From positions 1 through 24,069 of IMG/VR virus record IMGVR_UViG_3300046002_005306: DNA of 24,069 nt; one strand, given 5' to 3'. Below the pieces are notes generated by a model, which searched no databases, was not told the DNA's origin, and saw only the letters and a list, made by a program, of their open reading frames with translations. How positions within the stretch are numbered: the stretch's first letter is position 1; each line of letters starts with the position of its first letter. Below are positions 9,075-15,204 of the stretch, one piece after another. Both the position numbers and the translations under genes were made by a program. The stretch comes from a virus.

Positions 9075-9407
9075 ATGGACATTTATACAATCTGGGCCAA
9101 CAAGGCCGGCGACATTTCAGATCTTGAATGGGTCACGGGCATGAAAAGTTTCTTTGATCATTTGATCTCTGAAGGCAAAATGGAGAGCTATAGAATCACA
9201 CGCTGCAAGATGGGATTCCGCAGCATTGCTGACATGCCTGAATGGATGATCTTGATGGAGTTCACAGGCATGGCCCAAATGGATTCAGCATTTAAACGGG
9301 TAGCACCCCTGGAAGGTGAACTCGAAGTCAAACACAAAAGTTTCAATCAGTTTGTGTCAGGTGATATTCAACATGCCTTGTTCAGGGATTGGCCTGATCA
9401 ATTTTGA
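9075..9407 (+). CDS. DUF6614-like small protein
   Basis: This 110-residue protein begins MDIYTIWANKAGDISDLEWV. It then has a segment like YRITRCKMGF, a strand segment MPEWMILMEFTGMAQMDSAF, and FKRVAPLEGELEVKH ending near ALFRDWPDQF. From memory this series matches DUF6614, a short family of unknown function common in Alphaproteobacteria, with a ferredoxin-like alpha/beta fold as in NIPSNAP-type proteins. GGAG lies 8 bases before the ATG. The last 26 bases overlap the end of the convergent radical SAM gene. In a phage it looks like a host-derived accessory gene. Role unknown. Confidence 0.65.
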   Translation: MDIYTIWANKAGDISDLEWVTGMKSFFDHLISEGKMESYRITRCKMGFRSIADMPEWMILMEFTGMAQMDSAFKRVAPLEGELEVKHKSFNQFVSGDIQHALFRDWPDQF

Positions 9408-10647
9408 TCATTTTCCATTCGGGCAATATAGTTTTCCATTCTTGCTTGGCATCATACCAATTGAGAAAAATTTTTAATTTTTCATGTAAAGTCTGATCAA
9501 ATTTACACGATTGTATTAGTTTTATTAAGCTATCAATGTTTATATGAGACTCAGTCACATGCGGAGACACAGCTAATTTTATGGATGTTTTTAGAATATC
9601 AACTACTGCTTGTTCTATTATTTCTGTAGGAACTGCAGACAATGAAAGATAGTCGGGCTCAACTAACACTTCTAGAGAAATAGAAATATCACGTTGAGAA
9701 CTCCATTCTAATAGATCAACAAGTTTAGATATGGTAAGAGCTTGTAGTGTATGATGAATATAAATATTGCTTGTGCCATAGCAGTCAACATACCTAGATA
9801 TGTTAGCATCTATAGTTGCCCAGTTACTGCCTCGACGAACATAATCCTGCAATTGATCTATTCCCTCAAGACTTACCACAAAAGAAACACTTTTAAAATG
9901 GCTAAGTTTTTTGTGAGTTTCAACAAGATCTTGACTTCCGTTGGTAATGAATACCAAATCAATGTTGGTTGATTTTGAATGATCAGCTGCAAGTAATTCG
10001 TCTATTAGAGTTTGATCTAACAACGGTTCACCACCCAACAATTTAATCTGTTTTGGCTGTTGTTCTAAGATTTGTCTTAGGTGTTGATAATTGTTGTTTT
10101 TCTTAAACTCAGATCTAATACGAGTCAAATAATCTGGATCCTCGGATAACTTGGCTTTTACCAAAGTATGTTGTTGATTTTTTTTCCAAATAGTATAAAT
10201 TTTACTACTAGATCCAGGATTACACATTGCACACGCAAAGTTGCAAAGATTACTGCAACGCACATCTGCGGTGACCAATAGATCATTACGGTAATCTTGT
10301 TTGTGTTTTATAAATGATGCTACCCAAGATTTATCAAGATTATTGTTATTGTTAGTTACAGTATTATTAATAACTTGTCTTAGACTAACTTGATTGTATT
10401 CTTCTTTTTTCCAGCATGAACTACATTCTGGTAGTGGATTACCAGCGGTTAACTGTTGTCTAAGATATTGCACATAGTCTGAATTTAGCCAAGTTGTCAA
10501 CAAGTCAGAATTCAGACTATAATCAGTTCTTCCAGAATATTGAGTTTTATCATGATCAATGTTACAACACACCATGAATTTCCCATCAGTATGATTTCTT
10601 ACACTGAACCACGGTGCCGAACAAAAAGTCTTTTTAGAAAATTCCAT
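9382..10647 (-). CDS. Radical SAM enzyme with N-terminal twitch/SPASM-like cysteine module
   Basis: This 421-residue protein has a radical SAM cluster motif CNFACAMC at Cys135/139/142. It is followed by GGEPLLD (the SAM-binding GGE) and strands such as LVFITNGS and VSFVVSLEG. Before it lie CSAPW, VCCN and PECSSCW, cysteine groups typical of SPASM or twitch domains that usually follow, rather than precede, the radical SAM core. An additional iron-sulfur cluster is likely. Such enzymes start radical chemistry on peptides, RNA or small molecules; the substrate cannot be told. It shares its N-terminal cysteine layout with the 496-residue gene at 13714-15204. The ATG at 10647 has no ribosome site, and a strong hairpin ends 12 bases upstream. 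The gene is AT-richer than the virion genes. Confidence 0.88.
   Translation of the reverse strand: MEFSKKTFCSAPWFSVRNHTDGKFMVCCNIDHDKTQYSGRTDYSLNSDLLTTWLNSDYVQYLRQQLTAGNPLPECSSCWKKEEYNQVSLRQVINNTVTNNNNNLDKSWVASFIKHKQDYRNDLLVTADVRCSNLCNFACAMCNPGSSSKIYTIWKKNQQHTLVKAKLSEDPDYLTRIRSEFKKNNNYQHLRQILEQQPKQIKLLGGEPLLDQTLIDELLAADHSKSTNIDLVFITNGSQDLVETHKKLSHFKSVSFVVSLEGIDQLQDYVRRGSNWATIDANISRYVDCYGTSNIYIHHTLQALTISKLVDLLEWSSQRDISISLEVLVEPDYLSLSAVPTEIIEQAVVDILKTSIKLAVSPHVTESHINIDSLIKLIQSCKFDQTLHEKLKIFLNWYDAKQEWKTILPEWKMIKIDQANP
9395..9414 (+). terminator. Weak terminator-like hairpin at the end of the plus-strand unit
   Basis: TGATCAA and TTGATCA form a 7-bp stem with a two-base loop, followed by TTTT on the plus strand. 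The stem is AT-rich and overlaps the stop codon of the DUF6614-like gene and the end of the convergent gene. Any termination would be weak. Confidence 0.3.
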
Positions 10648-10650
10648 TAC

Positions 10651-10658
10651 ATATTTAA
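10651..10658 (-). promoter_or_regulatory. TTAAATAT late-type box before the radical SAM gene
   Basis: The minus strand reads CTTAAATATG directly upstream of the radical SAM start codon, similar to the TTAAATA before the gp48-like gene. It is only three bases from the ATG, so if active the mRNA would be essentially leaderless. In AT-rich DNA this may be chance. Confidence 0.25.
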
Positions 10659-10860
10659 GAGCTGCTGAGCAGCTCAGTTGATTTCGCTTTGCTCATCAAC
10701 TTAATAGACATAAGAGCAACGCGACCTTAATACTCATCTAGATTAATTGGTCACACTTAGCCCTGACGGGCTAAGAAAAAACACGAGGTTCTCATCTGAG
10801 TAGCTCAGTCACACAGCGTTAGATCTACAGTGTACATACAATATGCACACAACACAGGCG

Positions 10861-11019
10861 GTTGTCCGGTACCTATTCAATCTGTCTTTACAACGGCGGC
10901 TTGCAAACATACGCTATCATGCTTGCAAAGCGTGGGGTTATGGTTAATCCCCATCATTGGGCCTTTTTACAATTCTTTTCAAACAGCAAAACCGCGGCAG
11001 TTTGCGATCGTCGTCCGGT
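10861..11019. repeat. Short direct repeats in the non-coding stretch
   Basis: GTTGTCCGGT at 10861-10870 recurs as GTCGTCCGGT at 11010-11019, and GCTTGCAAA occurs at 10899-10907 and again at 10921-10929. TTGCAA is also self-complementary. The repeats could be protein-binding sites or opposing strands of RNA helices. Confidence 0.6.
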
Positions 11020-11132
11020 CAAGGATAGTTGCTGAGTGCTTGCGGCAGCGGCAAGACTTCCATCCCTGCGATCCCTAATCCAGGTCTAGAGCACACGATA
11101 TTGGCCTGCGCAAGCCTTAACTGCTTAATTGA

Positions 11133-11561
11133 TTAAAGTTTGTTTATTATGTGCGAACCATGTACTCTTACTTGTATATGGCCGTTGTAATAATCTGTTG
11201 ATTCTAATACTTGTCTGCTGAACTGTTCACGAGCCTCGATGTAACTACATTCTGACTTGGATGCACAGTAGAAAAGTATCTCTCTGGTAAAGTTTTCGGT
11301 GCCTAATTGTTCGATGTCTTTTGAAAGTTCCGGGCTTGAACCGTAGTACTCGCGCCAGTCTGAGTCGACCTTGCTGCGAACTTTCTTTTTCTTTTTTATG
11401 CCGTTTTTTTGTTTTACTGTCTTGTAAGTTGTTTTTGAGAACTTAGCTAGTTTTTTGCCTATGTACTTGCGTCCAGATAGATTATTTCTGATTAAGTATA
11501 CAAATCCAACACACTCTTCGGGCAATGTCTCAACTGGGGTGTTTTGATATTGCCAAGTCAT
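11133..11561 (-). CDS. GIY-YIG family endonuclease, Seg-like
   Basis: This 142-residue protein starts MTWQYQNTPVETLPEECVGF, then VYLIRNN, SGRKYIGKKL, i.e. the GIY-YIG core as VYL and KYIG. A lysine-rich stretch follows (about residues 50-66), then SDWREYYGSSPELSKDIEQL and ENFTREILFYC, and SYIEAREQF with the expected metal-binding glutamate. Similar free-standing proteins in aquatic T4-like phages are usually annotated as Seg-like homing endonucleases. It lies just after gp46 (71-bp gap) and before the non-coding hairpin stretch, as expected for a mobile gene inserted between core genes. Only the N-terminal nuclease domain is present, with no long DNA-binding tail, so the target and even homing activity are open. 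Confidence 0.8.
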   Translation of the reverse strand: MTWQYQNTPVETLPEECVGFVYLIRNNLSGRKYIGKKLAKFSKTTYKTVKQKNGIKKKKKVRSKVDSDWREYYGSSPELSKDIEQLGTENFTREILFYCASKSECSYIEAREQFSRQVLESTDYYNGHIQVRVHGSHIINKL

Positions 11562-13713: not shown

Positions 13714-15204
13714 TTATTTGCTAGTATACACGTATCCCATTGCAGATGCAATCTCGTTATGGGTTAATGCAAAGTTTTCCTGACGAATTTTGTCGTAATA
13801 GCCGATGTATTGCTGAAATTCTGTGCCAGGGCCAGCAGGAGAACTAAGCAGTGTTGTTGCAATGTTTTTGAGCTCTGGCCATCGACAGTTTTGATATCGA
13901 GCAATAACTAACTGTTGTGCAGATTTGGTTAAATTTTTAATGTCCAGAAGTGCAGGCTGAGAGACATAGTTTAATCGAACTTTAATACCTAATTGCTCAG
14001 CCCACTCAAACACATCTCCGAGATAAAATACGTTCATTATATTTACTGATGGCATTAAACTGATTTCAACGTTTGGCAATTTTAAATTGAGCAAACGTGT
14101 AATGTTTGATTCAACCTCAATCCAACTTCCGCCTCGTTCTAGTTCGAATCGTTTACCTATATTATCGATGCTAAAATGAATGTCTACATGCCTAAAATGC
14201 GACCATAGGGGGATTAATTTTTCTGGCCAGATGGAACCATTGCTGTTATAGTGCAAACGTATTTTACTAGCATGTCTCTCTTTGACTGCAATTTTTGCTA
14301 ACTGTGTTAACGACTTTACTAAAAATGGCTCACCACCATACATGTCAATATTGATTAATGAATCAAGAATCTTGCTAACTTGAGTTAACGCAGCCGATTC
14401 TTGATCCCAATTATAAATTTTTATTGGTATAGTTTTGTGTCTATGTTGCTCTTCGGCATGCGAAGAACTAGAATCACTATTGCAAATTCTACATTTAAAA
14501 TTACACACTGATCCAGGCTTGATATCCAACCTAGAAATAACTGGACTGTGGAGATGATTTATTAAATCTGTCTTTAACAGTGATAAATGCAGCATACGAC
14601 TACTAGTAATTCCCATGCTCTCGGTATTCCAGCATTTAGTACAGCCTTTGGGTTTTTTGCCTGATAAAAACTCTTGTCGCAATTCTTGCAATTCTGGAGC
14701 TTGGAAAAGTTCAGTTAACTCAGTTTTTATAACATTACCGATAACACCGTTATACACACAACAAGGTTTTACATTTTGTGCAGCATCAATTTCTAAATGC
14801 ATCCACGGAAGTGGGCAAATAGTATTAGGTAATGTAAAATTTGTGCCTAATTTGGTTGTGGATAAAAATTCCCCTGTGATAATTTTGAAAGGTACAGTAT
14901 CAGTGCTGAATTCTAAACATATACGTTGATTAGATAGTAATGAGTCTTGGCTGACGATTATCACAAAAAAGTTACTAACATCAATGTAATTGGCAGCTTG
15001 ATATAACTGTATTAACAGGTCATCCGGCACAGCATGCGATGTATAGATTATTAATCGTTCATTGGGTTGATAAACACTACGCCAGTTCTTTTGAAAAAAT
15101 TTATAAGCTGCCGCCGGGCTGTGTGTTAACTCTGCTAAATCAACACAGTCTAGCACCTGGTAGTCTTTTTCTATCAAGGCCAGAAACTCTGTAACACTAA
15201 TCAT
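13714..15204 (-). CDS. Second radical SAM enzyme with N-terminal extension
   Basis: This 496-residue protein has a radical SAM motif CNFKCRIC at Cys234/238/241, followed by YGGEPFLV and strands such as RLHYNSNGS and HIHFSIDN (read VDIHFSIDN). Upstream are the cysteine groups CPLPWMHLEI, KPCCVY and PKGCTKCW, the same arrangement as in the 421-residue protein at 9382-10647, so the two are probably paralogues. An additional domain of about 125 residues at the N-terminus (from MISVTEFLALIEKDYQVLDC) has no signature I recognise. The substrate is unknown. It sits between gp46 and three unknown genes. A 9-codon open frame with a good ribosome site overlaps its start by ATGA and may help translation. 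Confidence 0.87.
   Translation of the reverse strand: MISVTEFLALIEKDYQVLDCVDLAELTHSPAAAYKFFQKNWRSVYQPNERLIIYTSHAVPDDLLIQLYQAANYIDVSNFFVIIVSQDSLLSNQRICLEFSTDTVPFKIITGEFLSTTKLGTNFTLPNTICPLPWMHLEIDAAQNVKPCCVYNGVIGNVIKTELTELFQAPELQELRQEFLSGKKPKGCTKCWNTESMGITSSRMLHLSLLKTDLINHLHSPVISRLDIKPGSVCNFKCRICNSDSSSSHAEEQHRHKTIPIKIYNWDQESAALTQVSKILDSLINIDMYGGEPFLVKSLTQLAKIAVKERHASKIRLHYNSNGSIWPEKLIPLWSHFRHVDIHFSIDNIGKRFELERGGSWIEVESNITRLLNLKLPNVEISLMPSVNIMNVFYLGDVFEWAEQLGIKVRLNYVSQPALLDIKNLTKSAQQLVIARYQNCRWPELKNIATTLLSSPAGPGTEFQQYIGYYDKIRQENFALTHNEIASAMGYVYTSK

What the first reader, a model, noticed from the sequence alone, without database searches (positions are those of the whole stretch)
10648..11132. 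485-bp non-coding stretch packed with hairpins and repeats
Phage genomes rarely leave this much DNA uncoded. At least six inverted repeats and two direct-repeat pairs occur, the composition differs from the flanks, and there is no tRNA or known RNA signature. It could be a new structured RNA, a replication or packaging site, or the RNA part of an element linked to the adjacent GIY-YIG gene.
Basis: seen in the sequence. Interest (0 to 1): 0.6.

Follow-up and report, generated by a model that had tools for sequence, protein, structure and literature searches.

The report
Phage RNA with twin 7-letter elements
The gap codes for a large folded RNA of a T4-like phage, of which only the first third was catalogued before, and it carries two copies of a 7-letter word that always change together between phages, which suggests that the RNA reads one outside partner twice.

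Summary
The gap is real and non-coding, but not unknown: 136 nt on the minus strand (11116-10981) match Rfam RF01718, Polynucleobacter-1 RNA (111 bits; cut-off 37). That 141-nt motif is only the 5' third of a ~470-nt RNA. In 44 diverse relatives, 56 proposed base pairs are kept in 93.6% of cases, 43 of them with compensatory changes. The same place in hundreds of freshwater and marine T4-like phages, directly after a GIY-YIG or an unrelated PDDEXK nuclease gene, holds this RNA or one of several further 5' architectures without any Rfam match. All share a 3' module: two copies of UGAC-N10-[7-mer], separated by a hairpin, then two hairpins. The two 7-mers are identical in 107/108 type A and 92/96 type B RNAs (about 20 expected), although the 7-mer changes at least 31 times on the type A tree. 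Nothing else in the RNA, and no site in 1.77 Mb of aligned phage DNA, follows these changes. I conclude: a trans-acting phage RNA whose twin elements read one outside partner. Partner and role are not identified. Direct guidance of the neighbouring nuclease is disfavoured: 98.6%-identical nucleases sit beside different RNA types and 7-mers.

The parts
10655..11125 (-). Whole structured RNA (~470 nt), from just after the GIY-YIG stop to the terminator-like hairpin; ends are estimates
   Evidence: Conserved block in 44-sequence alignment A1 with 14 helices; ends not mapped by experiment
10981..11116 (-). 5' domain = Rfam RF01718 Polynucleobacter-1, model 1-141 complete
   Evidence: 111.3 bits, gathering 37
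10984..11034 (-). Helix 11034-11030 with 10988-10984 closing the end of the RF01718 part; four pairs counted, all with compensatory changes, 100% paired
   Evidence: helix 3
10905..10951 (-). Two covarying hairpins beyond RF01718: 10951-10948/10938-10935 and 10925-10919/10910-10905
   Evidence: helices 6 and 7 (97.0% and 92.2% paired; all 11 pairs with double changes)
10815..10915 (-). Long-range pseudoknot: hairpin loop 10915-10911 pairs with 10819-10815
   Evidence: helix 8: 99.1% paired, 5 of 5 pairs with double changes
10822..10880 (-). Helix 10880-10878/10824-10822 around the most conserved stretch GGTACCGGACAACCGCC (10873-10857)
   Evidence: helices 9-11; conserved in types A and B
10791..10811 (-). 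Element E1: TGAC (10811-10808) ... ACTC + 7-mer AGATGAG (10797-10791)
10756..10775 (-). G+C hairpin between the twin elements
10733..10753 (-). Element E2: TGAC (10753-10750) ... AATCT + the same 7-mer AGATGAG (10739-10733)
10677..10700 (-). Hairpin with conserved UGAGC..GCGAA core
   Evidence: helix 13 (80.5% paired)
10659..10675 (-). Terminator-like 3' hairpin, stem sequence almost wholly exchanged between relatives
   Evidence: helix 14 (96.1% paired, 6 of 6 pairs with double changes); short U tail, so termination is inferred
11133..11561 (-). SegE-type GIY-YIG nuclease gene (142 aa), directly upstream of the RNA
   Evidence: PF19835, 111.8 bits
11633..13705 (-). gp46-like (SbcC/Rad50 type) recombination gene upstream in the same direction
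   Evidence: AAA_23; synteny

Best explanation
The stretch is the gene of a ~470-nt, minus-strand structured RNA of a T4-like phage; RF01718 is only its 5' domain. It lies at the 3' end of the gp47-gp46-nuclease recombination gene cluster and is probably made from that operon or a promoter inside the nuclease gene, ending at the 3' hairpin (inferred). The large 5' part, which exists in several exchangeable architectures, folds into a pseudoknotted scaffold (pairing shown by covariation). It presents two equal 21-nt modules, UGAC-N10-[7-mer], on either side of a hairpin (shown by sequence). The 7-mers are the recognition parts: they are kept identical to each other and change in step (shown). 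Because no other part of the RNA follows them, the partner is a separate molecule read twice, most likely by base pairing with a host-encoded or variable phage nucleic acid (inferred). This would make it a dual-seed trans-acting RNA that retargets both seeds together.
For: RF01718 match. Covariation over the whole length: 56 pairs, 93.6% of cells paired against 72.7% in shuffles and 34-44% when slid, 43 pairs with double changes, none of 500 shuffles as high. 7-mers identical in 107/108 type A and 92/96 type B RNAs against 19-20 expected, maximum 33; the four B exceptions are register shifts that match by eye in whole or most letters. Match length exactly 7 in 175 of 216 and never extending to the left, with different flanks CTC and TCT, which speaks against short gene conversion. 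At least 31 changes of 7-mer class on the RNA tree built without the 7-mers. No other column covaries with the 7-mer. In 1.77 Mb of pairwise-aligned phage DNA, 41 of 44 sites that switch in step are the two elements themselves; the other 3 equal the random control.
Against: No partner was found: no complement in the RNA or within 1.5 kb, no conserved mRNA target family, no phage tRNA. Expression of the RNA was not observed. A protein partner whose specificity drifts could in principle give the same lock-step. Only the alignable part of the phage genomes was tested. One type A RNA (L297) and one type C RNA beside a PDDEXK gene (L651) differ at position 7.
Confidence: 0.5

Rival explanations
1. 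Protein-binding decoy or assembly scaffold: the twin modules are two binding sites for a dimeric host or phage protein whose preferred 7-mer drifts.
For: Two equal modules with constant UGAC and spacing of 47-64 nt; repeated identical motifs are typical of protein sponges such as CsrB (general knowledge).
Against: The 7-mer changes at most positions across types, for example AGATAAT, ACATGAA, GGTGAAG, TGCCAAG, GGGTAAT, more than one protein fold would be expected to follow; the adjacent GIY-YIG protein does not track it.
Confidence: 0.22
2. RNA component of an RNA-guided nuclease: the GIY-YIG or PDDEXK enzyme next door uses the RNA, and the 7-mers select DNA targets.
For: The RNA, found by its own sequence, has the GIY-YIG gene within 2.5 kb upstream in nearly all loci with enough flank; the proteins are little more than catalytic domains; a nuclease is kept even when its fold is exchanged.
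Against: GIY-YIG proteins 98.6% identical adjoin types A, B and C and different 7-mers; the same RNA types go with two unrelated folds; relatives have the gene without the RNA beside it. Position at the end of a conserved gene cluster explains the association.
Confidence: 0.1
3. Cis-regulatory element of the recombination operon or of a downstream gene, as the original description guessed for RF01718.
For: Weinberg et al. listed the motif as possibly cis-regulatory (PMC2864571); it follows the nuclease gene directly.
Against: The next genes are mostly on the opposite strand in relatives, so it is not a 5' leader there; lock-step 7-mers need an outside partner.
Confidence: 0.12
4. DNA-level site: origin, packaging site, or homing-endonuclease target.
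For: Direct repeats and hairpins at the junction of convergent gene clusters; a nuclease gene next door.
Against: Covariation includes many G-U pairs on the minus strand, for instance U-G in 26 of 44 sequences at pair 169/200, which would be C-A mismatches on the other strand; strand-specific RNA folding fits, DNA cruciforms do not.
Confidence: 0.06

Closest known systems
Rfam RF01718 Polynucleobacter-1 RNA (Weinberg et al. 2010, PMC2864571)
   Same: The 5' third of this RNA is a full-length, high-scoring member; fresh water fits.
   Different: The described motif is 141 nt with no known function, listed for Burkholderiales, fresh water/estuary. Here it is the 5' domain of a ~470-nt phage RNA with twin 7-mers, and one of several interchangeable 5' architectures.
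Large ornate bacterial and phage RNAs (GOLLD, ROOL, HEARO)
   Same: Long, complex, conserved, phage or mobile-element linked, function initially unknown (general knowledge).
   Different: No Rfam model of these or any other family matches the window or types B to F.
IscB/TnpB omega RNAs and IS110 bridge RNAs
   Same: A non-coding RNA beside a nuclease or recombinase gene, with short recognition segments; bridge RNA has two recognition loops (general knowledge).
   Different: No RuvC, HNH or IS110 enzyme next door; the 7-mers are equal to each other and do not match flanking DNA.
Dual-seed bacterial small RNAs and CsrB-type sponges
   Same: Repeated identical short motifs and a 3' terminator-like hairpin (general knowledge).
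   Different: Far larger and pseudoknotted; the repeated motif is variable between relatives but locked within one RNA.

Membership tests
RF01718 Polynucleobacter-1 RNA | Covariance model score above gathering cut-off, full length | tested here: met
   111.3 bits against 37, model 1-141 of 141
RF01718 Polynucleobacter-1 RNA | Occurs in Burkholderiales genomes | tested here: inconclusive
   No match in 392 Burkholderiaceae genomes, but nothing rang in controls either; abundant in viral contigs
RF01718 Polynucleobacter-1 RNA | Cis-regulatory position before a gene | tested here: not met
   Downstream genes are mostly convergent in relatives; this was a guess of the authors, not a definition
GOLLD / ROOL / HEARO and other Rfam families | Rfam model match | tested here: not met
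   Only RF01718 matched in the window; types B, C, D, E, F have none
RNA-guided nuclease (omega RNA type) | Recognition segment matches adjacent DNA | tested here: not met
   No excess of complements in the RNA or 1.5-kb flanks
RNA-guided nuclease (omega RNA type) | RNA binds the neighbouring nuclease | not testable with these tools
   Protein identity does not track RNA type or 7-mer
Group I intron | Rfam intron model match and an interrupted gene | tested here: not met
   No match; intergenic position
Type III toxin-antitoxin RNA | Tandem repeats followed by a toxin gene | tested here: not met
   Only two 21-nt modules with a hairpin between; the following gene is a radical SAM gene here and varies in relatives
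CsrB-type sponge | Many GGA motifs in loops | tested here: not met
   Two motifs only, and GGA is absent from many 7-mers including this one

The most novel reading that the evidence does not exclude
A superfamily of large phage RNAs with programmable twin 7-nt guides on exchangeable scaffolds: both guides are retargeted together against a host or rival-phage nucleic acid, either as a stand-alone dual-guide RNA or with the neighbouring nuclease. This would be a guide-RNA principle not described before.
Probability: 0.25. Interest if true: 0.92.

Novelty: new variant of a known kind. Interest (0 to 1): 0.74.

Why it matters
An Rfam family known since 2010 and without a function turns out to be one end of a much larger RNA that is widespread in aquatic T4-like phages and exists in several scaffold types. 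The lock-step 7-mers are a rare, testable clue to mechanism: they say where the partner is contacted, that it is contacted twice, and that it changes between closely related phages. That makes the search for the partner, and so for the function, direct.

Tried and rejected
Complement or copy of the 7-mer within the RNA or 1.5-kb flanks: no excess. Mutual information with all RNA columns: only the twin responds. Genome-wide excess or clustering of the 7-mer in 11 phages: none apart from the RNA. Complement near start codons of orthologous genes: no shared target. Long exact complements and phage tRNAs: none. Orthologous sites changing in step in 18 phages: only the RNA itself. Residues of the GIY-YIG protein tracking the 7-mer: weak only, 0.34 bits of about 1 at best. 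Duplicated UGAC tetrads varying together: marginal, 163 identical against 155 expected, maximum of shuffles 162. Named phages and plasmids: no real match. The 25 bacterial-genome hits to the 17-nt core lack the RNA around them and are chance. Promoter scan: nothing above chance that fits. Literature: only the 2010 paper names the family. A search for endonuclease VII had no positive control that rang, so its absence proves nothing.

Full report
What is there. The stretch 10648-11132 lies between a SegE-type GIY-YIG gene (11133-11561, minus; PF19835, 111.8 bits) and a radical SAM gene (9382-10647, minus). It holds no convincing ORF, no tRNA, and is richer in G+C than its flanks. Strict repeat counting gives three inverted repeats with 8-nt arms, and folding energies are only about two standard deviations better than shuffles.

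It is not without a known signature. Rfam's RF01718, Polynucleobacter-1 RNA, matches 11116-10981 on the minus strand over its full length (111.3 bits, cut-off 37). The family was described in 2010 from fresh-water and estuary sequences and Burkholderiales and has no known function (PMC2864571); no other paper in the library names it.

The RNA is three times larger than the Rfam model. A search with the nuclease proteins and with conserved RNA words gave several hundred viral contigs. In an alignment of 44 diverse type A sequences over the whole gap, covariation marks helices from end to end. A structure of 56 pairs in 14 helices, nine of them beyond RF01718, keeps 93.6% of cells paired against 72.7% in shuffles and 34-44% when one side is slid; 43 pairs show changes on both sides; the covariation score is 0.547 against 0.180, with none of 500 shuffles as high. 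The structure was derived from the same alignment, so the slid control is flattered, but the double changes are not explained by that. They include a pseudoknot between the hairpin loop at 10915-10911 and 10819-10815 (99.1% paired). G-U pairs in the given strand show that the minus strand is the RNA.

The same place holds other RNAs. Directly after the nuclease gene, relatives carry type A (this one), type B (about 400 nt) or type C in fresh water, and A-like, B-like, C-like and further architectures (called D, E and F here) in the sea. Types B to F have no Rfam match at gathering scores, and B and E none even at relaxed scores. Some phages with the gene, such as Methylophilales phage Melnitz and cyanophages, have ordinary genes there instead. 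The letters of the architectures are mine. That all descend from one ancestral RNA is likely, because they share the 3' module and several share a central GGGGUA..CCGCCUC hairpin, but it was not tested with a formal model.

Twin elements. All types end with the same module: UGAC-N10-ACUC-[7-mer], a G+C hairpin, UGAC-N10-UCU-[7-mer] (the three or four letters before each 7-mer are part of the N10), a hairpin with a UGAGC..GCGAA core, and a terminator-like hairpin. The two 7-mers are the same letters within an RNA but differ between RNAs: 107 of 108 type A and 92 of 96 type B RNAs have equal 7-mers, against 19-20 expected (maximum 33) if paired at random. The four type B exceptions match in whole or most letters once the register is adjusted by eye. 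The identity is 7 nt long in 175 of 216 RNAs and never extends to the left, since the flanks are CTC and TCT; gene conversion of such a short piece without its flanks is implausible. On a tree of type A RNAs built without the 7-mers, the 7-mer class changes at least 31 times. Marine RNAs show the same with other words: ACATGAA, ACATAAA, GGTGAAG, TGCCAAG/TGTCAAG, GGGTAAT, TGGTAAA. An automatic detector of such twins, with strict settings, rings in 45 of 67, 23 of 68 and 24 of 78 downstream regions of three locus sets, in 0-2 of 77-78 upstream controls and in none of 639 shuffles.

Where is the partner? Not in the RNA: no other column follows the 7-mer. Not next door. Not in the conserved phage genome: among 18 large phage contigs, 1.77 Mb of aligned pairs contain 44 sites that switch in step with the 7-mers; 41 are the two elements themselves, and the remaining 3 equal a random control. 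It is not read by the GIY-YIG protein: proteins 98.6% identical lie beside types A, B and C and beside different 7-mers. The partner is therefore host-encoded, or a fast-changing phage molecule, or another protein. Base pairing is the simplest reading of a word that can change at most positions while staying equal in two copies; it is an inference.

The nuclease. By RNA pattern, nearly every locus with enough flank has a GIY-YIG gene upstream (139 loci for type A, 129 for type B, 17 for C; part of these loci had been fetched with the GIY-YIG protein itself, part by RNA words alone). Most of the rest have, in the same place, a PDDEXK_15 gene (PF24608; PHROG 244 'RusA-like Holliday junction resolvase'). 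The two were mutually exclusive on the contigs searched, and PDDEXK loci carry the same RNA types A, B and C. The usual order is gp47, gp46, nuclease, RNA, with later genes on the other strand. I read this as a recombination cluster in which a structure-specific nuclease was exchanged, with the RNA at its 3' end; a guided nuclease is possible but disfavoured.

Verdict. A real, large, conserved phage RNA; partly known by its 5' end; with a twin recognition feature that I know of in no described RNA class (own knowledge, not a search result). Function remains open, and no expression data were available. Shown: the structure, the twins and their lock-step. Inferred: transcription unit, trans action, base pairing.

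Noticed in passing
window 11133-11561 and about 500 named phage records: The GIY-YIG gene family is annotated 'NAD synthetase' in PHROGs (phrog_447) and in many cyanophage, rhizobiophage and other records, although it carries a GIY-YIG nuclease domain.
   Followed up: partly
L102, L108, L134, L147, L160, L340, L581-L660: A PDDEXK_15 nuclease takes the place of the GIY-YIG nuclease before the RNA; the two were mutually exclusive on the contigs tested, which looks like non-orthologous replacement.
   Followed up: partly
window 9382-10647 and 13714-15204: Two radical SAM proteins, one with a SPASM domain, lie in a T4-like structural and recombination gene region; unusual cargo.
   Followed up: no
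G001, G016, G463, G464 (331-347 kb contigs): This gene neighbourhood sits in contigs of about 340 kb, twice the usual T4-like size; G016 has 28 tRNA genes and a tmRNA-like hit.
   Followed up: no
L407, L422, L424, L084, L616 between nuclease gene and RNA or downstream: Spacer tracts of repeated AGGCACA / CTAGGCTAA-like units and AGACACNAAGTC words precede the RNA in marine and some freshwater loci.
   Followed up: no
L160 about 3.6 to 1.3 kb before the RNA anchor at 10576: The gp46 gene appears interrupted just after a GTGK motif by a long reading frame; it may be an intein or a similar insert.
   Followed up: no
L651 downstream of PDDEXK gene: One of the few RNAs with unequal twins: ACATGAA in E1 and ACATGAT in E2.
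   Followed up: no
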